Positions 48,062 through 57,200 of a DNA stretch of 57,200 nt are shown here, piece after piece. Below the pieces are notes generated by a model. That model ran no database searches, was not told where the DNA came from, and saw nothing but the letters and a program-made list of their open reading frames with translations. The translations under genes were made by a program, and so were the position numbers. Numbering within the stretch: position 1 is the stretch's first letter; each line of letters opens with the position of its first letter. The stretch lies in the NCBI GenBank assembly GCA_027451445.1, contig DAIDJG010000418.1, forward strand, positions 1-57,200, read 5' to 3'. The stretch is from Singulisphaera sp. (GTDB taxonomy: Bacteria; Planctomycetota; Planctomycetia; Isosphaerales; Isosphaeraceae).

Positions 48062-48868
48062 TCACTGACGGCTCTCCAACTCGCGCAGGAAGGCGCCAAT
48101 GGCCTCGCGAAACGCAAGCCCATCCTCAACGTGCGGCAGATGTCCCACGTTCGGCAGGACTACCATACGTGCCCCCGGGATCGCTTCCGCCAAAGCACGA
48201 GCGGCCTCCGGCGGGTTAACCAGATCGAGCGCACCCGTGAGCACCAGGGTCGGGACCCGGATCGCTCCGACTCGTCCCCGCGCATCGTGCGAGGTTGCCG
48301 CTGCCGCTTGCCGCGCGAAAGCGTCCGGTGGTTGCGGCCACGCGTTTCGCTCGGCGAATCGCGCAAGCCCTTCGACCTGTGACGCCGTCTGAAAAAATGG
48401 GGGCGCAACGAGCCACGGTAGCGTCACCCTGGCAAAAGTCCCCGGATCGGTTCGCTCGCGCATCAGTACCCAGGATTCAATGACCGCCTGCCGCCAGGCG
48501 TTGGCGCCCATGTGCGTCGAACAAAGGATGAGGCTGCGCACACGTTCGGGATGCCTCAGCGCGAGTTCTTGCGCCACGAGTCCGCCCAGCGAGTGTCCCA
48601 CGACGTGCGCCGCGGGCAGTTCGAGCGCTTCGAGCAGCCCGGCCGCGTCGTTCGCCAGGTCGGCCGTTGTGTACGGGCCGTCAGACCGATCGCTCTGACC
48701 GACGTCGCGAGCGTCCAGCCCAAGGGTCCGATACCGCGCTCCAAAATGTCGGACCGGCACGCTGAAAGCGCGGTGATCCCCTCCCAGTCCGCTCAGGAAG
48801 AGCAGGGGTTCCCCCGCGCCGAAGGCTTCGTAAAACAAGTGCCGACCATTGGCAAAAACCCGGGGCAT
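48062..48868 (-). CDS. Alpha/beta-hydrolase-fold protein
   Basis: 268 residues from the ATG at 48868 ([16 protein letters not shown]); an upstream in-frame ATG is unlikely. Oxyanion region [14 protein letters not shown], nucleophile elbow VVGHSLGG (Ser), the acid in [15 protein letters not shown] and the catalytic histidine in [12 protein letters not shown] complete the triad. It resembles 3-oxoadipate enol-lactonase-type and related esterases; the substrate cannot be told. The 75-residue gene starts 84 bp downstream. Confidence 0.93.
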
Positions 48869-48962
48869 ACGCGTCTTCCCACCAAACCCTGAGTGCGTTT
48901 CGCGACGTCCGGGGGACTTGACATTGCCCCCCTGCGCGGACACAATCCATTATCTCGCCAAG

Positions 48963-49035
48963 GCCCCCATCGTCTAGCGGCCTAGGATACTAGGTTCTCA
49001 GCCTAGGGACCGGGGTTCGAGTCCCCGTGGGGGTA
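48963..49035 (+). tRNA. tRNA-Glu(CTC)
   Basis: A 73-nt cloverleaf. The acceptor is GCCCCCA / TGGGGGT with a G:T end pair and A discriminator. The anticodon stem CTAGG/CCTAG encloses the loop TTCTCAG, giving anticodon CTC. The T arm is CCGGG-GTTCGAGT-CCCGT. No CCA is encoded. It is intact and probably the attachment site of the island that begins just after it. Confidence 0.95.
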
Positions 49036-49051
49036 TTGCTTGAAGCGTAAG

Positions 49052-49080
49052 GACTTATGGCGAACCCATAAGTCTTTTCG
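49052..49080 (+). terminator. Rho-independent terminator of the tRNA gene
   Basis: GACTTATGG (49052-49060) pairs with CCATAAGTC (49066-49074) around a 5-base loop, followed by TTTT. It lies 17 bp after the tRNA-Glu and isolates it from the integrase. Confidence 0.8.
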
Positions 49081-49096
49081 CATTTTACGGCCCCAA

Positions 49097-49118
49097 ATTC
49101 CACAGCAATTCCACAGCA
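49097..49118. promoter_or_regulatory. Tandem ATTCCACAGCA sites upstream of the integrase
   Basis: Two abutting copies of ATTCCACAGCA (49097-49107, 49108-49118). A third copy lies at 49431-49441 and an inverted TGCTGTGGAA at 49414-49423, both inside the integrase gene. Repeated short sites beside a tyrosine recombinase gene are expected of arm-type or excisionase/repressor binding sites; no binding is shown here. Confidence 0.5.
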
Positions 49119-49186
49119 GTACGGGCTTGACGTGGCCATAGCATGGGTTGACGACACAACCCTGTTCTCCTCGGGGAATCACTGCT

Positions 49187-50428
49187 ATGGCTTGGAAAGT
49201 CGAAGATAAGTCCGGTAATTTGCTGGTCGGGTTCCGTTGGGGCGGTCGGACGTTTACCCGAAGTCTCGACACGACCGATACGGCTCTTGCCGATCTGGGC
49301 GTTGCGAAAGTGGAGGAAACGATCCTCCGTCTGAAGCGGGGTTGGCTTACCCTGCCCCACGGTGCCGATCCCGGCACGTTCATTGCGTCCGGGGGTACAC
49401 TCACGGCCAAACCTGCTGTGGAACGGTTAGATTCCACAGCAAAGCCCCGCGAACCGTTGACGGTCAAGGAATTGCTCCAACTGTACCGCGATACACTCAC
49501 CCCCGGAAGCAAGGAAGCCAATACGATCGTGACTGAGAAGGTGCATGCAAAGCACTTCGAGCGAATCTTAGGCGCTAAGCTGACGTTCGACACGATCAGT
49601 CTGGCGACGGTCCAATCTTATGCCGATCGGCGAGCGAAGGAGAAGGCGGAACGAGACACGATCCGTAAGGAACTCGCGACACTCCGCGTGGTCACGGCTT
49701 GGGCGTTTAAGCGTGGTCACATCGCTCGAGCAGCGTCATGGCTCATTAAGGACATCACGCTTCCCAAGGGCAATGAGAAGGGCGAGTTTCTAACCTGGGA
49801 GCAGTGTGCACGGAAGGTCGAACGCAGCAAGCTGAAGGGCGAAGCGGCGTCCGAGGTATGGGAACGTCTCTGGCTCGACCAGGCCCAAACCCTTGAGTGC
49901 CTGGAATGGGTCCGCACGCATGCGAAGCAACCGTTCACCTATCCCATGTTCGCGTTCGCTGCCTATACCGGCGCTCGCCGCTCCGAGATACTTCGGAGCG
50001 AACGAGACGATTGGGACTTCGAGGCGGAGACAGTCAGCATCCGCGAAAAGAAGGCAGACACCTCGAAGCGCCTTACGCGCCGGGCTGTGCGAATTCACCC
50101 CGCGCTGGCCAAGGTCATGAAAGCATGGTTCGCCGTCCACCCTGGCGGAAACTGGACAGTCGCAAATGCGGACGGCTCCGCTGTGGGGCCGAGAATGGCC
50201 TCAAAGTATTTCCGGTCCGCGGTGGCCAACAGCAAATGGAAGGTGCTCAGGGGATATCACGTCTTCCGCCACAGCTTGGCGTCGAACATGGCGAGCGCAG
50301 GTATCGACCAGCGCGTGATCAATGAGGTTCTCGGCCACTCGACAGAGGACATGGAGCGACGGTATCGACATCTGCTCCCGCAAAAGCAGGCGGACGCGAT
50401 TGGGTCGCTTTTCGCGACCAGCAAGTGA
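49187..50428 (+). CDS. Site-specific tyrosine recombinase (integrase)
   Basis: 413 residues from the ATG at 49187 (MAWKVEDKSG). An N-terminal arm-type DNA-binding segment (GFRWGGRTFTRSLDTTD) is followed by a SAM-like core-binding region (about 90-190) and the catalytic domain. Catalytic residues: R264 in TGARRSE, H358-x-x-R361 in YHVFRH, H384 in GHS and the nucleophile Y393 in RRYRHLLP. It integrates or excises an element by recombination at att sites. It lies 150 bp after an intact tRNA-Glu and faces away from it, the common layout of tRNA-targeted islands. Confidence 0.93.
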   Translation: MAWKVEDKSGNLLVGFRWGGRTFTRSLDTTDTALADLGVAKVEETILRLKRGWLTLPHGADPGTFIASGGTLTAKPAVERLDSTAKPREPLTVKELLQLYRDTLTPGSKEANTIVTEKVHAKHFERILGAKLTFDTISLATVQSYADRRAKEKAERDTIRKELATLRVVTAWAFKRGHIARAASWLIKDITLPKGNEKGEFLTWEQCARKVERSKLKGEAASEVWERLWLDQAQTLECLEWVRTHAKQPFTYPMFAFAAYTGARRSEILRSERDDWDFEAETVSIREKKADTSKRLTRRAVRIHPALAKVMKAWFAVHPGGNWTVANADGSAVGPRMASKYFRSAVANSKWKVLRGYHVFRHSLASNMASAGIDQRVINEVLGHSTEDMERRYRHLLPQKQADAIGSLFATSK

Positions 50429-50500
50429 ACCGCTAGTGACTCGCGCGCAATCTTTCGGGCCGGCCCGTCACTCGACTGGGCCGGCCCCGCCTGCGGGGGG

Positions 50501-50737
50501 TTATCGCTCCGCCCATTGCATCATCTGCCGGGCTCCCATCCATCCAGCAAAATCTGTTTGAATCCGGACCAATACCGCCATCTCGACGTCCGGGCTGTAG
50601 TGGGCCGTCGTGTTGAACACGGCGTCGTCTCCCGCCATGATCCTGTCTAACAGCTCGTTCCCGCGCTCGGTCATGTACTCGGCTGGGCCAGTTATCGAAT
50701 CGCCGTCAATCGTGAATCGTCCAACTGTCCGCGCCAT
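50501..50737 (-). CDS. Small island protein of unknown function
   Basis: 78 residues from the ATG at 50737 with GGGAG six bases upstream. The chain (MARTVGRFTIDGDSITGPAEYM) is mixed alpha/beta and ends in QMMQWAER. I do not recognise a family. It is the last of three co-directional small genes, 28 bp downstream of the next. Codon use is normal for the window. Phage- or plasmid-type accessory genes often look like this. Confidence 0.6.
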   Translation of the reverse strand: MARTVGRFTIDGDSITGPAEYMTERGNELLDRIMAGDDAVFNTTAHYSPDVEMAVLVRIQTDFAGWMGARQMMQWAER

Positions 50738-50765
50738 GGTCATCTCCCTTGGTGGTTGCGATTGC

Positions 50766-50963
50766 TTACCGCTCCAACTTGTCCGCCCGCTCCCGGAGTT
50801 CTTCCGCCGCATCCATGATCTGATCGAATCGTTCCTCTCGACCGTGTTCGATCGCGCCCTCGGCCAGTGCCTCAAGCTGTTCGGCGCGCCATCGCTTCCG
50901 GGCCGCGGCGCGTCGCTTGCCGCCCACGTGTTCGCCAATCTTGAAAACCCTCGGATCGTCCAC
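50766..50963 (-). CDS. Small basic helical island protein
   Basis: 65 residues from a GTG at 50963, chosen because GGGGAGG stands six bases upstream; an ATG at 51098 would overlap the previous gene. The sequence is helical and charged (KRRAAARKRWRAEQLEALAEG, with heptads toward AAEELRERADKLER). It may bind nucleic acid or dimerise through the coiled coil. It is the middle gene of the three-gene operon. Confidence 0.5.
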   Translation of the reverse strand: MDDPRVFKIGEHVGGKRRAAARKRWRAEQLEALAEGAIEHGREERFDQIMDAAEELRERADKLER

Positions 50964-51030
50964 CGAAACCTCCCCACGTTCGGGGACCGACGACCCGGTC
51001 GGAATCGACCGGGTCCGGGGGCCGGGCCGA

Positions 51031-51507
51031 TTACCTGTACATTTCCACTCCGCAACGGCATTGGTCGCGCGACGCTTCCAAACCGGCGTCATACCCACGT
51101 GCTTCCCATTGGCTACGGATGTCGTCTTCGTAAACCCCGATTCGGGCCTCGAACTCCTCGGGGGTCGTGGCGTCCGTCATGCGGATCTGAAGCGCAAGCT
51201 TCTCCATCGCACGCGCGAACATCTCGCCCACCGAGTTACCCCACGCTCGGAAAGCCAACGCTTCCTGATCGGCCAACTCGGCCAGTGTGAAGTTCGGCCA
51301 TGACGGCTCGTCCGACGGAAGGTCGAAATCCACCGGGAAAGCGGGTTCCGGGCCGTCGTAAATGCTCTCTGGCGCGTCATCGGGCGTCGGATGGACGATC
51401 GGGCCGACGGGCGCGGGAACGGCCGTAATGGCGTCTGGGGCGTCGTGGCGGGGCTCTGGGCTGAACGGACCTTGGACGGGGGTGAAATCGCGTGATACGC
51501 TGGCCAT
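51031..51507 (-). CDS. Island protein of unknown function
   Basis: 158 residues; CCGGAGG precedes the ATG. The first ~60 residues are Pro/Asp-rich and probably disordered, and the rest is helical (LAELADQEALAFRAWGNSVG). C-terminal cysteines (DQCRCGVEMYR) end the chain. It is the first gene of the small minus-strand operon. A duplicated CCGGAGGAACC lies directly upstream (51511-51541). No family is recognised. Confidence 0.6.
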   Translation of the reverse strand: MASVSRDFTPVQGPFSPEPRHDAPDAITAVPAPVGPIVHPTPDDAPESIYDGPEPAFPVDFDLPSDEPSWPNFTLAELADQEALAFRAWGNSVGEMFARAMEKLALQIRMTDATTPEEFEARIGVYEDDIRSQWEARGYDAGLEASRDQCRCGVEMYR

Positions 51508-51901
51508 TGGGGTTCCTCCGGCTGAATCGGGGGTTCCTCCGGGCCGGGAAGTGGTAACGACACTTCTCGGCCCATCTTTTTGGTTTGGGACGGTCCCGAA
51601 ACCTACTTCAACTATACCAAAAAAACGAAAGGTACGCCACCGTTTTTCGACGTAACTCGAATTATGTCAGTAGGTTACGAGTTCGAGACGGAACGCCGCA
51701 GACTCCGCGTTCTTCTTGTTATCGTGAAACGAAACTACTTAATTTAATATAATATCTGTATTTTCACATTTTTTGAAAGCTACCCAGCGGTACAAGCCGA
51801 AGCGCGCTTTTTGCTTGACCCAGCCTCAAAAACGAATCACATTTGAGTTCCCTCTGATCGAGACCCTTTTCCGCCGTCCGGCCCGGCGAGGCTGGTGTTC
51901 G
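51508..51901. other. Divergent intergenic region with hairpin, A/T-rich half
   Basis: A hairpin GAAGTG-gtaacga-CACTTC (51548-51566) lies in the leader of the minus-strand operon. A minus-strand TATAGT near 51614-51619 could be a -10 box, without a clear -35. The right half (about 51730-51775) is strongly A/T-rich and precedes the J-domain gene, probably containing its promoter. Confidence 0.4.
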
Positions 51902-54199
51902 ATGAATTACTATGAAATCCTTGGGGTTCCGACAGACGCCGACGCTGCGCTCTTGAAGAAGGCATTCCGAGAGAAGGCAAAGAAGTACCACCCGGATCGA
52001 AACCAAGACGACCCTAAAGCGGCGACGAAATTCTCTAAACTCAAACATATCTACGACATACTTTCCGATCCAACCCGACGCGCCGCCTACAACGCAAAAC
52101 TTGCAGCCTCCGCGCAATCTCGCCGGCCAGAGCCCACTGCGGATGCTAACTCGCATAACCCGCCTCCCCCTCCCAAGGATGAATCCTCACGCCCTGCGGA
52201 CGATCGTGCTTCTAGGTTTCAGAGGGAGCGCCCAGACAAACAAGCCGACGACGCGGGAGAAGCCACCAACGATCGGCACACCGCGCGTCCGAGACCATCT
52301 TCGCCGATGAGTAGGCGTCCGAACCCCCTTGCATTTCTGGTGCGCGATCTTAGACTGACGGCTCTTGGCTTGATTTCATTGGTATGTATTTATCTTATTG
52401 TATCTAATATTGTGAAAATGCGCATGTATTCAACTAACACCGTATCTCGTTCAGTAGGCTCCAAAGCGCCATTTCCCAAACAACCCACATCTCAGTCCCA
52501 ACAGATACCGCCAGCGACCCCCGCTCGCCCGGAAAGCGCGGCTACCAACAAACGGGTGACCGCAGAGGTGCCGCCGCCAGCGCCTGACGAGCGTGATGAC
52601 GGCCGCTGGATTGGTGAGTCGGTTATACTGAAAAGCGTGGATACAATCCTCATGAAGTGCGGCAAGCCAGAGCCAGCAGGATATTACGACCGCCTTCAAT
52701 GGGTCACCGGCGTCGAAGGAGACCACTTGGTATTGGGAACCCGCAGACTCGGCGGACGTGTCCCGAAACGAGACGTTCTCAGAACAAAACTCGCCAACGC
52801 CTACTACAGCCGCCTGATTTTAGCCAACACGAACGACGCCTCGGCTTACATCGCGAGGGGACAGGTCCGCATGAGCGCCGACGCCTATGAAGAGGCCACC
52901 GCGGACCTTACCGAGGCGATTCGTCTCAATCCAAACCAGGTTGATACCTATGTATTGCGAGGTGGATGCTATGATGAATTGAAGCTATTTAAACTGGCAA
53001 TCGCTGACTATACGCGTTCGATTGAGACCGATCCTAAGCACTACAAAGCGCTTGCGAGGAGAGCCGTGACATATTACAACATGAAGGCGTCCGACTTGGC
53101 CCTTAAAGACCTAGATGCTCTCGTTCGCTTCTATCCGACTGATGCTGATGCGCTCACGTCACGTTCTCGTCTTCTTGAAGCTGCCCAGCGATTCGACGAC
53201 GCCATCATTGATTCGTCCCACGCAATCGAGATTGACAGTGACAACGACGAAGCGTACGCCGTGAGAGGGCTCGCGAAGATCGGAAAGAAAGACTTCCAGG
53301 GAGCCGTGGACGACCTAACACAGGCTATCATTTTTAAAAGCATGATTGCGATTGACACCTCTACATATCATAACAATCGTGGAACTGCATACGAAAGATT
53401 GGGGCAAACAGCGCATGCTCTCGCAGATTACGATGAAGCAATTCATCTTGACCCAAAAGACTCGCAGGCTCTCGTCAACAGGGGGCTCTTGCATTCGAAG
53501 CTGCGGAACATCGACCTGGCAATTTCTAACTTCACCGCTGTTATACGTCTTGATCCGAAAAATGCTACGGCTTACTTCAGCAGAGGTCTAGCCTTTCGGT
53601 CAAAGGGAGATTTCGACACTGCGATCGCCGATCTCACAAAGGCTCACGAGTTGGACCCCAACGATGTTGAAACGATCTATGCCAGAGGGGTCTTCTATGT
53701 GAAACAACAAAAACTTGACAATGCGTTAGAAGATTTGACCGAAGCTATCGCACTCGACAAGAATCATTACCTGTCTTACGTGTGGCGTGCAAGAGCCTAC
53801 GCCGCGAAAGGAGCCATCGACGACGGGATCGCAGATTGCACAGAGGCGATCAACATCGACCCCAAGCGGTTTGATGCATACCTTCAGCGTGGCAAGCTTT
53901 ACGGAATGAAAGAGGATGTAGACAGCGCGCTAGACGACTTCAATCGAGCGATGACCCGAAAGCCGGTAGACGAGTCTGGCTACCTGGACCTTGGAATGTG
54001 TCTCGCGCACGCCGGAAGCTACGCAAAAGCAACTATATGTTTTGATACTGCTATCGCAATCAATGATAAATATGCGAATGCATATCTCGAGAGAGGAAAG
54101 ACCTTAGCGGCGATGGGAAAGACATTGCAGGCGCAAGCCGACTTGCGAAAGGCGATCCAACTCGACCCGAGTCTGCAAGCTAAGCCGGCGGACAATTAG
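51902..54199 (+). CDS. Membrane-anchored J-domain protein with large TPR array
   Basis: 765 residues from the ATG at 51902 ([15 protein letters not shown]). J domain at 1-65 with the Hsp70-stimulating HPD at 30-32. A charged Pro-rich linker leads to one membrane helix at about 152-172, then a second linker. Residues about 230-300 (RWIGESVILKSVDT) form a small beta-rich unit. About 305-760 holds roughly a dozen TPR repeats of the A-x-x-D(L/Y)-T-x-A-I-x-L(D/N)P type. Topology predicts a cytoplasmic J domain and an extracytoplasmic TPR array. It should recruit DnaK to the membrane in response to something bound outside; that role is inference. Base composition is lower in G+C than the core genes. 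Confidence 0.9.
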   Translation: MNYYEILGVPTDADAALLKKAFREKAKKYHPDRNQDDPKAATKFSKLKHIYDILSDPTRRAAYNAKLAASAQSRRPEPTADANSHNPPPPPKDESSRPADDRASRFQRERPDKQADDAGEATNDRHTARPRPSSPMSRRPNPLAFLVRDLRLTALGLISLVCIYLIVSNIVKMRMYSTNTVSRSVGSKAPFPKQPTSQSQQIPPATPARPESAATNKRVTAEVPPPAPDERDDGRWIGESVILKSVDTILMKCGKPEPAGYYDRLQWVTGVEGDHLVLGTRRLGGRVPKRDVLRTKLANAYYSRLILANTNDASAYIARGQVRMSADAYEEATADLTEAIRLNPNQVDTYVLRGGCYDELKLFKLAIADYTRSIETDPKHYKALARRAVTYYNMKASDLALKDLDALVRFYPTDADALTSRSRLLEAAQRFDDAIIDSSHAIEIDSDNDEAYAVRGLAKIGKKDFQGAVDDLTQAIIFKSMIAIDTSTYHNNRGTAYERLGQTAHALADYDEAIHLDPKDSQALVNRGLLHSKLRNIDLAISNFTAVIRLDPKNATAYFSRGLAFRSKGDFDTAIADLTKAHELDPNDVETIYARGVFYVKQQKLDNALEDLTEAIALDKNHYLSYVWRARAYAAKGAIDDGIADCTEAINIDPKRFDAYLQRGKLYGMKEDVDSALDDFNRAMTRKPVDESGYLDLGMCLAHAGSYAKATICFDTAIAINDKYANAYLERGKTLAAMGKTLQAQADLRKAIQLDPSLQAKPADN

Positions 54200-54236
54200 A
54201 ACACGACTCGTTTGTATCATAGATTATTAAGGCTGT

Positions 54237-55055
54237 TCAATTGAGCAATATACGTTTCGAGCAATGGGTTTGCTCTGACTCGGTCGCTAACCGCGTCGTG
54301 TTTCTTTGAGCGCGTGCATTTAAGAATAGACAGTCGCGTGTGGATGATTGTCTGGCATCATTGATGACGCGTGTCCGAATCATTTCCAGAGCTTTGACCG
54401 CCGAGAGTAATCGCCGATGGCATCCACTGCGCCTCCGTTCCAGCGCCACCAGTTGCGCCGGGGCGAGATCGTCTAACCCTTGTTCAACGTCCAGGTCCGC
54501 GAGATAGACGTTGAACCGGCAGATCACGACCCGATCAACGAGGATCTCTTCCACCGGTGTCGGAAACGGGCCGGCAAGCTCCTTGCGCCACGATTCAATC
54601 ATCGTGTGCGCGTGAACGAGTTTATCCAGGTCGTTTCCCGCGAATCGCTCGACCAGCGTGTTTTTCAGGGCGAACGCGATATCGTGGCCTAATGGCATGC
54701 CCGTCACACTGGCCCGTTCGTCAGTCGGTTTCAACGTTGAAGCTCCTCTCCTTGGGCGCCACTGTCGCTTGTGGAGGTAAAAGCCCGCGGCCTCCATCGT
54801 ATCGCGGAACGCGGCGTCAACCAGTTGGCTGAAATCGGCCAACTGTGCATCAAGGTCCGCTAGATCGGCCTGGCGGGCCTCCCAGAGAGCAGAGGCGGCT
54901 TCCCGCGCGGCCTGACGGTTGGCACGCTGGGATTCGAGGGTGTGCGCGGCCAGCTCCGCTAAGGGACCGGAGCCCCAATACTCGACCCGGACCCGGCCGG
55001 CGCTGCGCCTGGATCGGTAGAGATACACCCGATCACCACGGTAGACAAGGCCCAT
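54237..55055 (-). CDS. Uncharacterised protein of a widespread planctomycete/accessory family
   Basis: 272 residues. The N-terminus MGLVYRGDRVYLYRSRR and VRVEYWGSGPLAELAA belong to a hypothetical-protein family I know from planctomycete accessory regions, where the beginning reads as a strand-rich Tyr/Arg module. A helical middle (ALWEARQADLADLDAQLADF) and a C-terminal helix with LERRRSGCHRRLLSAVKALE follow. The final ~50 residues look unlike the family and may be a drifted tail. It is on the opposite strand between the two J-domain genes. Function unknown. Confidence 0.62.
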   Translation of the reverse strand: MGLVYRGDRVYLYRSRRSAGRVRVEYWGSGPLAELAAHTLESQRANRQAAREAASALWEARQADLADLDAQLADFSQLVDAAFRDTMEAAGFYLHKRQWRPRRGASTLKPTDERASVTGMPLGHDIAFALKNTLVERFAGNDLDKLVHAHTMIESWRKELAGPFPTPVEEILVDRVVICRFNVYLADLDVEQGLDDLAPAQLVALERRRSGCHRRLLSAVKALEMIRTRVINDARQSSTRDCLFLNARAQRNTTRLATESEQTHCSKRILLN

Positions 55056-55293
55056 GTCTTACGAGTCTCTCAATTGCCCCAATTACGGAGTGCAGCAAAT
55101 TCTATGATTCCGCGGTCAGCCAAGAATCGTGAACGGGCCGGGAGGGCTCAGGCGTCGCATAAACCCTTTTCAATTCTGTGGTTTTTTGTTGACCATGCAA
55201 GCCACTGGACTGATGATAAGCGTCGTCGGGCCGCCGGTGCACTTGATTTTTCGGTTCGAGTCACCTGAACGCCCCGTTCGAAGGATTTGCGAC

Positions 55294-56034
55294 ATGCGAA
55301 CATGCCTCATTTTTTTTGCCCAAATCGAACAACCGTTTGAAGAGAATACGCAAGCTCAACTTATATTCGTATTGATACTCATAGGATTTTCAATTCTATT
55401 TTACTTTTTGCCGTGGCTTATTGCTGCGGGTCGTGGTCACCATAACTCCGGGGCAATCTTCCTCTTCAACCTCTTGCTTGGGTGGACTTTCCTGGGGTGG
55501 GTGTTGGCCCTCGTCTGGGCATTCACCTCGAGTCATTCCTCACAACAGACCGTCATGGTCAATACCGGAGATGGAGGCTCAGGTGGCATCAAACAGTCAA
55601 CTCGCCCCGGTCACGCCCACGCCTCCGTTGGCTGTCTTACGCCCATCTTCGCTATGATTGGCGTCGGAGCGCTGCTGTTTATAGTGCTCTCGCACGTCGC
55701 CGGGAACAAGGGGATCGTCCCCATGCTTCGCGAGAAGGTGAGGGGGGGAGCGGAGCAACCGAAGCCACAAATCGAAGCTCCCGCGGATGTCGAGCCTCCA
55801 AACGAACCGGAGCCTCCGATCGCTCGGAAAGAGCAGAGAGCAATCGTGACGCAACTTCGATCGGCGGACATATCCAAGAAAGCGGCGAGAGCGCTAGACA
55901 TCGCGCTTAACCGTGAGAGATTCGGCACGGTCGATGAGGCGCTCGCCGCGTACCGAGAGGTCGTGGAGAAATACCCGAACACACGCGCGGCAGAGACCGC
56001 TGAATTGCGGATAAAAGCTCTCATATCACGTTGA
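55294..56034 (+). CDS. T4 Imm-like (superinfection immunity) membrane protein
   Basis: 246 residues from the ATG at 55294 (AAGGA nine bases upstream); the open frame extends farther upstream without support. TM1 is LIFVLILIGFSILFYFLPWL, followed by the family hallmark IAAGRGHHNSGAIFLFNLLL and TM2 WTFLGWVLALVWAF. A third helix (TPIFAMIGVGALLFIVLSHV) and a soluble tail with a TPR-like helix pair (DEALAAYREVVEKYPNTRAA) are extra. T4 Imm blocks DNA entry of superinfecting phage; bacterial homologues are common and mostly untested. It lies between two J-domain genes on the same strand. Confidence 0.8.
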   Translation: MRTCLIFFAQIEQPFEENTQAQLIFVLILIGFSILFYFLPWLIAAGRGHHNSGAIFLFNLLLGWTFLGWVLALVWAFTSSHSSQQTVMVNTGDGGSGGIKQSTRPGHAHASVGCLTPIFAMIGVGALLFIVLSHVAGNKGIVPMLREKVRGGAEQPKPQIEAPADVEPPNEPEPPIARKEQRAIVTQLRSADISKKAARALDIALNRERFGTVDEALAAYREVVEKYPNTRAAETAELRIKALISR

Positions 56035-56325
56035 CTCAATCCGATTTGGTCGTTTCAGTCCTTCGCCGCGTTCAGCCGGCGCTCCGCCTCACATCTCGTC
56101 GGTCGATACGACGAGATCGGTAGAGGTAGGGTCGGTTGACGCGATCGATGAGTCCCATGGTTTACGAACCGTGACTTTGCCCCAAGGTTCTCCGATAGCG
56201 CTCCCGACCCTACAAAGCTGTCGACCTCGACCTTTTTGGGTTGACGGCGCTGGGAATGAAATAGACGATTGGACTTCGCACAGATCGGTGATTGTCGCCA
56301 AGTGGCCCACTGAGCCCGCCGCGCT
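56035..56325. other. Intergenic region before the second J-domain gene
   Basis: About 290 bp. A minus frame (56089-56310) has no recognisable family. It probably contains the promoter of the second J-domain gene, which lacks a clear ribosome-binding site. Confidence 0.35.
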
Positions 56326-57120
56326 ATGAATTATTACGAGATCCTTGGCGTCCCAAGAGACGCCGATGCTGAGACTCTAAAGAAAGCCTACCGCGAGAAG
56401 GCCAAGCAGTATCACCCTGACCGCAACCGAAACGATAAGAACGCCGCCAAGAAGTTTACCAAAATTCACCACATATATAAAATCCTATCAGATCCTAATC
56501 GCAGAGCATCGTACGACGCCAAGATTTCGAGTCCGCCACCGCCTCCCCCGCCCTCCAAACGTCGGGATTCGAAACGACCTGACGGTGGGGCAAATACTGA
56601 TGAGAAAGGAAACGGCGGCCCTCATAAAGAATCACCATTTAATAATACTAAAACTACCAAAAATTTTAACATGTCTACATTAATTGATAAAAGTGGATTT
56701 TTTCACTTGTTTTGGGACGTTCGTTTTACAGCCGCGCTGGGTGGTGTCCTGTTTCTCGCAATTTCATTATACGCTTATCTCTCGGCTCCATCATCCCAGA
56801 CGCGAAACGTACCACGCTCCGCTCCGATAACAACCAAGAGGGAGTCACCAGCCAAGGAGTCGGTCCCAACCGTGATTGAACATCCTCTGGCCGGGCCTCT
56901 CGTGCTCCTGGCGGCCGGGGAATTCAACATGGGGTCGACGCGCAAAGACGAGCAAGCACACGCGAACGAGCGTCCCCAACGCAAAGTCCGTATTCCACAT
57001 TCATTGTTTATTGGTCGATATGAGGTTACAGTAGCTCGGTTCCGTAAGTTTGTCTCAGCTGTCAGTAACGGTCTGAGTGGGTACCACTTTTTCGGCGAGT
57101 CGGGCACCAGAGCGAAATGA
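56326..57120 (+). CDS. Membrane-anchored J-domain protein with truncated FGE-sulfatase-like domain
   Basis: 264 residues. J domain at 1-65 with HPD at 30-32, very similar to that of the gene at 51902. A poly-Pro linker leads to a membrane helix at about 133-153. From about 195, [17 protein letters not shown] and [15 protein letters not shown] are the start of a formylglycine-generating-enzyme-like (FGE-sulfatase) domain. A stop at 57118 cuts it after about 70 residues, whereas the domain is usually ~220. The +1 frame continues open to the window end with GAFKGVGWTLHWNEG, which fits such a domain better. A frameshift is likely. If whole, it would display an FGE-like domain outside and a J domain inside. 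Confidence 0.8.
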
Positions 57121-57200
57121 GTGGGTTTCGGCGAGTGGGAGCCAGTCAGGTGCTTTCAAGGGTGTGGGCTGGACCTTACATTGGAACGAAGGATCGACCA

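What the first reader, a model, noticed from the sequence alone, without database searches (positions are those of the whole stretch)
51902..54199. J domain tethered by one helix to an extracytoplasmic TPR array
Seen: HPD-containing J domain, membrane helix at about 152-172, roughly a dozen TPR repeats. Known: J proteins deliver clients to DnaK in the cytoplasm. Inference: a transmembrane sensor that reports outside binding to the chaperone machine, which is unusual.
Basis: partly seen in the sequence, partly recalled or inferred. Interest (0 to 1): 0.58.

Follow-up and report, generated by a model that had tools for sequence, protein, structure and literature searches.

The report
J-domain membrane protein on mobile island
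A bacterial protein that probably holds a chaperone-recruiting J domain inside the cell and a long protein-binding array outside it, carried together with a broken sister gene on a mobile DNA island; the layout looks new, but what it does has not been tested.

Summary
The 765-aa ORF at 51902-54199 has an intact J domain (2-64), one strong hydrophobic helix (153-171) and 13 back-to-back TPRs (313-758). Outside placement of the TPR array is inferred. In favour: 54 of 62 related SH3-TPR proteins examined carry an export-type hydrophobic segment just before the same module, against 0 of 53 DnaJ/CbpA controls. Flanking charges do not help. A second gene (56326-) has a 73%-identical J domain and one helix, but an FGE-type domain instead of SH3-TPR. 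Between the two J domains, changes are mostly silent, so J function is constrained. That second gene is interrupted by an insertion sequence. Both genes lie just behind an intact tRNA-Glu and a tyrosine integrase. A 41-nt copy of the tRNA 3' end on contig C500 marks the probable far end of the island, whose C500 part encodes a primase-like protein and an excisionase-like protein. No J-helix-TPR relative appeared in the genomes screened. Best reading: a membrane DnaK recruiter with a swappable outside binding part, carried as mobile-island cargo. 'Reports outside binding' is plausible but untested.

The parts
51902..54199 (+). J-TM-SH3-like-TPR protein, 765 aa (P0001)
51905..52093 (+). J domain, residues 2-64, HPD at 30-32
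   Evidence: PF00226 E 2.3e-22; aligned to solved E. coli DnaJ J domain
52358..52414 (+). single membrane helix, residues 153-171
   Evidence: mean KD 2.24, sole segment above 1.2
52604..52777 (+). SH3-like domain, about residues 235-292 (name tentative)
   Evidence: shared with other TPR proteins of the family; weak profile matches to SH3 chains, E 0.08-0.9
52838..54175 (+). 13 TPR repeats, residues 313-758
56326..57053 (+). paralogue, 5' part: J domain (56329-56517), helix (56725-56781), start of FGE-sulfatase domain (from 56899)
   Evidence: PF00226 1.2e-24 and PF03781 2.4e-9; helix KD 1.87
57054..57200 (+). 6-bp direct repeat (57054-57059), then one end of an insertion sequence that interrupts the paralogue; contig ends inside it
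   Evidence: inverted-repeat match to the start of contig C500, score 66 against 45 at most in 200 shuffles; same 6 bp on the C500 side; an 18-nt end sequence occurs at 7 places in the genome
48963..49035 (+). tRNA-Glu (CTC), integration site; its last 41 nt are repeated at C500:7100-7140
49148..50428 (+). tyrosine integrase of the island
   Evidence: PF00589 1.3e-21; phrog_1 1.3e-38
55129..56034 (+). membrane protein with Imm_superinfect domain and weak C-terminal TPR; start uncertain
   Evidence: PF14373 1.6e-17; phrog_1039 7.4e-24
54237..55055 (-). island ORF, 272 aa, no match
   Evidence: no Pfam, PHROGs, PADLOC or NCBIfam match

Best explanation
A single-pass membrane J-domain protein. 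The J domain and a disordered Pro/Arg-rich linker lie in the cytoplasm (inferred). One helix crosses the membrane (predicted). An SH3-like domain and 13 TPRs lie outside and bind a partner protein or envelope component (inferred). By fixing the J domain at the site of that partner, or clustering it, the protein brings an Hsp70 (DnaK type) and its ATPase cycle to membrane clients there, so outside binding decides where, perhaps when, Hsp70 acts. The sister gene on the same island keeps the J-linker-helix part and carries an FGE-type domain instead, so the outside part is swappable. Both are cargo of a tRNA-Glu-targeted integrative element. Shown by sequence: domain order, selection on the J domain, paralogue, island. 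Inferred: topology, Hsp70 recruitment, ligand binding, signalling.
For: Domains. J domain keeps HPD and the basic helix before it, aligned to DnaJ of E. coli. Selection: between the two J domains, differences fall 13/8/42 on codon positions 1/2/3; dN 0.17; dS saturated. Hsp70 genes are present in the genome: 10 matching stretches on 5 contigs. Outside location: 54 of 62 SH3-TPR matches examined have a hydrophobic stretch within 80 aa upstream; shuffled 19%; DnaJ/CbpA controls 0 of 53 (rows). One more has a signal-like start and a thioredoxin-like stretch before the SH3-TPR (L209), and one of the 54 is zinc ribbon-helix-SH3-TPR (L189). Swap. Island.
Against: Flanking charges are equal here (+3/+3) and lean the other way in the paralogue (0/+2). 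No structure support: the single-sequence model had mean pLDDT 39. No orthologue was found, so the pairing of J with SH3-TPR cannot be shown to be conserved. The sister gene is broken in this genome. No Hsp70 gene sits on the known part of the island.
Confidence: 0.5

Rival explanations
1. Self-biogenesis: the J domain recruits Hsp70 to keep the long C-terminal part unfolded for export or to help membrane insertion, and plays no part in sensing.
For: The J domain is at the N-terminus, made first, next to the helix that would enter the translocon. Secreted SH3-TPR proteins of similar size exist.
Against: Those relatives are exported behind a plain signal-type segment without any J domain (54 of 62), so a J domain is not needed for export of this module.
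Confidence: 0.17
2. Mobile-element conflict: the J-TM proteins are defence or exclusion cargo of the island, the outside part recognising a phage or another element at the surface and Hsp70 acting as switch.
For: Island with integrase, excisionase-like and primase-like genes. Neighbour with an Imm_superinfect domain, phrog_1039 'immunity to superinfection'. Kaur et al. 2020 (PMC7159879, passages seen) describe conflict systems with HSP70 and GrpE in which an FNIII protein is fused to a DnaJ domain or to TPRs, and FGS-domain effectors.
Against: PADLOC gave only weak matches, mainly TPR and primase-polymerase models. None of the GTPase/GAP1/FNIII/MoxR partners was recognised among the island ORFs tested in Pfam. 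Location in an island is not proof of defence.
Confidence: 0.2
3. The TPR array is cytoplasmic: the helix is buried in a soluble fold, or the protein is inverted, and it is a J-TPR co-chaperone or scaffold.
For: Flanking charges do not favour J-in/TPR-out. J plus TPR co-chaperones such as DNAJC7 and DNAJC3 are known (recalled).
Against: The helix is strongly hydrophobic and bracketed by long low-complexity linkers, and the paralogue keeps a helix at the same place. Homologous SH3-TPR modules follow export signals. An inverted protein would put J outside, away from cytoplasmic Hsp70.
Confidence: 0.1
4. Decaying or inert cargo: a chance fusion maintained briefly on a mobile element.
For: Singleton architecture in the screens. 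Sister gene interrupted by an insertion sequence. Low GC3, as of foreign origin.
Against: This ORF is intact over 765 codons with 13 clean TPRs, and the J domain shows mostly silent change relative to its paralogue.
Confidence: 0.08

Closest known systems
DjlA (E. coli membrane-anchored DnaK co-chaperone)
   Same: One membrane helix, cytoplasmic J domain, works with DnaK at the inner membrane and feeds an envelope-stress pathway when overproduced (PMC11451591, passages seen).
   Different: In DjlA the helix is N-terminal, a TerB-like domain follows and J is C-terminal, with only a short outside tail. Here J is N-terminal and some 590 residues lie beyond the helix.
Class C J-domain proteins, incl. 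tail-anchored DjlB/DjlC
   Same: Only the J domain is shared with DnaJ; other domains and membrane helices are typical of the class (PMC8215388, passages seen).
   Different: No member with J-helix-SH3-TPR or J-helix-FGE is named in the passages seen, or among the J ORFs examined here.
FNIII-DnaJ or FNIII-TPR proteins of GAP1-N2/HSP70 conflict systems (Kaur et al. 2020)
   Same: Fusion of a J domain, or of TPRs, to a candidate recognition part; Hsp70 as partner (PMC7159879, passages seen).
   Different: No GTPase, GAP1, FNIII, HSP70 or GrpE gene recognised on the known part of this island.
SH3-like/TPR proteins of the same bacterial family
   Same: Same C-terminal module.
   Different: They mostly follow a signal-type segment (54 of 62, one of them with a zinc ribbon before the helix, L189); no J domain was seen in the stretches printed for the 62.
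Ser/Thr-kinase receptors of kinase-TM-ectodomain type (recalled)
   Same: Cytoplasmic output domain, one helix, swappable outside domain.
   Different: A J domain stands where the kinase would be; no kinase in P0001.

Membership tests
J-domain protein, class C | J domain with HPD | tested here: met
   PF00226 2.3e-22; HPD at 30-32
J-domain protein, class C | no DnaJ zinc-finger or C-terminal substrate domains | tested here: met
   Pfam lists only DnaJ and TPR-like or helical-repeat families; NCBIfam DnaJ models far below cut-off, e.g. 75 of 377 bits
J-domain protein, class C | stimulates an Hsp70 ATPase | not testable with these tools
   Hsp70 genes exist in the genome
DjlA | N-terminal helix, TerB-like domain, C-terminal J | tested here: not met
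   J is N-terminal and no TerB found; DjlA model not among the 25 best NCBIfam matches of P0001 (43 in all), and 22 bits against a cut-off of 162 in the paralogue
GAP1-N2/HSP70 conflict system | GTPase, GAP1, FNIII and HSP70 genes as neighbours | tested here: not met
   none among the island ORFs scanned; about 15 kb of island seen, the inside of the insertion sequence not seen
DNAJC7/DNAJC3-type TPR-J co-chaperone | TPRs followed by C-terminal J (recalled) | tested here: not met
   order is J, helix, TPR
tRNA-targeted integrative element | integrase next to an intact tRNA | tested here: met
   tRNA-Glu 48963-49035, integrase 49148-50428
tRNA-targeted integrative element | repeat of the tRNA 3' end at the far end; uninterrupted site in relatives | tested here: met
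   41-nt copy at C500:7100-7140; the sequence following it matches what follows tRNA-Glu in G001 (83% over 102 bp) and G010 (86% over 90 bp), whereas the window's match to G001 stops 2 nt after the tRNA
tRNA-targeted integrative element | excises and moves | not testable with these tools
   excisionase-like HTH protein only
bacterial SH3-like domain | SH3 fold | tested here: inconclusive
   weak SH3 profile matches, best 0.08; P0001 model unusable

The most novel reading that the evidence does not exclude
A previously undescribed kind of membrane receptor in which a cytoplasmic J domain replaces the kinase, with interchangeable outside domains (SH3-TPR, FGE), carried by a tRNA-targeted mobile element and used at the surface in conflict with phages or rival elements, Hsp70 being the intracellular switch.
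Probability: 0.18. Interest if true: 0.78.

Novelty: new variant of a known kind. Interest (0 to 1): 0.5.

Why it matters
The membrane J proteins seen in the papers read here keep their functional domains inside (DjlA, DjlB/DjlC). A J domain joined through the membrane to a large outside binding array would let events outside the cell direct Hsp70 inside, a route I know of in no bacterium (recall). The paired J-helix-FGE gene suggests a plug-in design, and the mobile island gives it a way to spread.

Tried and rejected
Orthologue hunt: J+linker+helix queries against 45 family genomes and 392 phylum genomes, and the J domain alone against 297 class genomes (list cut), plus genome contigs (19 loci), viral contigs (18 loci) and plasmids (no record covers 80% of the query). 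Outside the own genome the best J domains are at most 57-58% identical. Architecture was checked on 70 distinct DnaJ/CbpA ORFs (counted; no helix), on 20 long or odd J ORFs (helices beyond J in L224 (three), L228 (three) and L229 (one, C-terminal); weak hydrophobic stretches in L210 and L227; hydrophobic segments before J in L213 and L215; none J-one helix-TPR), on the 19 loci (two helices in L079; one before a C-terminal J in L088) and on the 18 viral loci (three helices in L273). Limits: the phylum and class sets are samples, and the phylum call scored at most 9 candidates per genome, so diverged relatives may be missed.

Structure prediction of P0001 alone gave pLDDT 39 and was not used. 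Search for related islands through the primase: 8 of 45 genomes match, the own included. Of the 7 others 3 were fetched; one (G053, L291) has a tRNA-Pro near the match and an ORF that looks like an integrase to my eye, not scanned. Positive-inside rule: no help. 'Spurious upstream start at 51773' rejected because the J domain begins at residue 2 of the ATG frame. RNA families: only the tRNA in 48500-57200. Promoter-like sites: 12 against 3.6 expected, not interpreted.

Papers: nine searches gave, in the listings seen, no title describing a J-helix-TPR or J-helix-FGE bacterial protein. Passages read: PMC8215388, PMC7159879, PMC11451591. The prokaryotic survey cited there (Barriot et al. 2020) was not read.

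Full report
What is there. The ORF at 51902-54199 (+, 765 aa) encodes a J domain at residues 2-64 (PF00226, E 2.3e-22), a low-complexity Pro/Arg-rich linker, one hydrophobic helix at 153-171 (mean KD 2.24, the only segment above 1.2), a second Pro-rich linker, a small domain at about 235-292 and 13 TPRs at 313-758. The small domain is shared with other TPR proteins; its profile gives weak matches to SH3 chains (best E 0.08), so 'SH3-like' is tentative. Pfam did not name it.

Is the J domain meant to work? It keeps the HPD and aligns over its length with the J domain of E. coli DnaJ. A paralogue at 56326 has a J domain 49 of 67 residues identical; DNA differences fall 13, 8 and 42 on codon positions 1, 2 and 3, dN is 0.17 and dS is saturated. 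The linkers hardly align. So the J domain was kept by selection while the linkers drifted. The genome holds Hsp70 genes (10 matching stretches on 5 contigs) and 8 J-domain matches. Of these 8, seven were read as ORFs and only these two show J plus a helix; the eighth (L006, a 99-aa frame) was not read.

Where is the TPR array? The profile of the SH3-like region matched 95 stretches in 31 of 45 genomes. I examined 62 of these 95 (60 loci); three more are P0001 itself, a copy cut by a contig end and a second domain in an ORF already counted, and 30 were not fetched. In 54 of 62 a hydrophobic 13-mer lies within 80 residues upstream of the module; shuffling the same stretches gives 19%, and 0 of 53 DnaJ/CbpA ORFs pass. 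Of the eight that fail, two have almost no upstream frame, and L209 has a signal-like start with a thioredoxin-like stretch before the module; the other five are L182, L195, L197, L198 and L208. L189 reads zinc ribbon, linker, helix, SH3-like, TPR (the zinc ribbon named by eye), the same plan as P0001 with another N-terminal domain. This favours an outside location. Against it, the charges around the helix are +3/+3 in P0001 and 0/+2 in the paralogue, which does not favour J-in/TPR-out. With one helix, J and TPR must be on opposite sides; J outside would have no Hsp70 (established knowledge of Hsp70 location). A single-sequence AlphaFold run was useless (pLDDT 39).

The sister gene. At 56326 a second gene begins with the same J-linker-helix plan but goes on into an FGE-sulfatase domain (PF03781, profile positions 5-55). 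The frame stops at 57117, near the contig end at 57200. Contig C500 of the same genome begins with the rest of an FGE domain (profile 77-254). The end of the window and the start of C500 form an inverted-repeat match (score 66; at most 45 in 200 shuffles), each flanked by the same 6 bases, and the two flanks joined give one 471-residue frame without a stop. The 18-nt end sequence occurs at 7 places in the genome, 5 of them within about 125 nt of a contig end (one contig's length was not looked up). So an insertion sequence interrupts the sister gene and explains the contig break.

The island. A tRNA-Glu lies at 48963-49035, a tyrosine integrase at 49148-50428. The last 41 nt of the tRNA recur at C500:7100-7140; no intact tRNA was found in the first 20 kb of C500. 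The DNA after that copy resembles what follows tRNA-Glu in G001 (83% over 102 bp, repeat included) and G010 (86% over 90 bp), while the window itself stops matching G001 2 nt after its tRNA. GC at third positions is 0.50-0.66 for four island genes (both J genes, the 272-aa ORF and the Imm_superinfect gene), 0.68 for the integrase and 0.73 for a small ORF frame, against 0.70-0.89 in four flanking genes. The C500 part adds a primase-like protein (AEP-TOTE 3.1e-10), a 612-aa protein without a good match and an excisionase-like HTH protein. With 8.0 kb on C418 and 7.0 kb on C500 the element is about 15 kb without the insertion. The joining of C418 and C500 is inferred from these three signs (FGE halves, insertion ends, tRNA repeat), not read through.

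How it may work. Best supported: a membrane-fixed Hsp70 recruiter whose outside part chooses the site of action. DjlA is the nearest worked-out case: it needs its membrane helix and J domain, and acts with DnaK on Rcs components at the inner membrane (PMC11451591, passages). The difference is the large outside part. A role in conflict is suggested by the island and by the Imm_superinfect neighbour, and Kaur et al. describe HSP70-linked conflict systems with FNIII-DnaJ or FNIII-TPR fusions (PMC7159879, passages), but none of their hallmark partners was recognised here and PADLOC gave no telling match. A self-biogenesis role is possible but less likely, since relatives export the same module without J.

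Novelty. No J-helix-TPR or J-helix-FGE relative was met outside this genome, with the limits stated under Tried and rejected. As a protein it is a class C J-domain protein of unusual layout: a new variant of a known kind.

Noticed in passing
56326-57200 and L252:142-829: J-helix-FGE sister gene split by an insertion sequence with inverted ends and a 6-bp direct repeat; the contig breaks inside it.
   Followed up: yes
55129-56034: Membrane protein with Imm_superinfect domain and a weak C-terminal TPR, between the two J genes; start codon uncertain.
   Followed up: partly
49093-49117 and L252:6942-6966: A 25-nt identical stretch just inside both ends of the island, holding two tandem copies of an 11-nt unit; perhaps integrase arm sites.
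   Followed up: no
L189 (G036:C255): Zinc-ribbon-like N-terminus, helix, SH3-like, TPR: same plan as P0001 with another N-terminal domain (zinc ribbon named by eye).
   Followed up: partly
L209 (G031:C309): Signal-like start and a thioredoxin-like stretch before the SH3-TPR module (named by eye).
   Followed up: no
G000:C272:45455-51558 and G000:C380:9509-12401: Two Hsp70-type genes close together on C272; an Hsp70 next to a J-domain match in a 99-aa frame on C380.
   Followed up: no
L252:2821-5976: AEP-TOTE-like primase and an unmatched 612-aa protein in the far part of the island; primase relatives in 7 of 44 other family genomes.
   Followed up: partly
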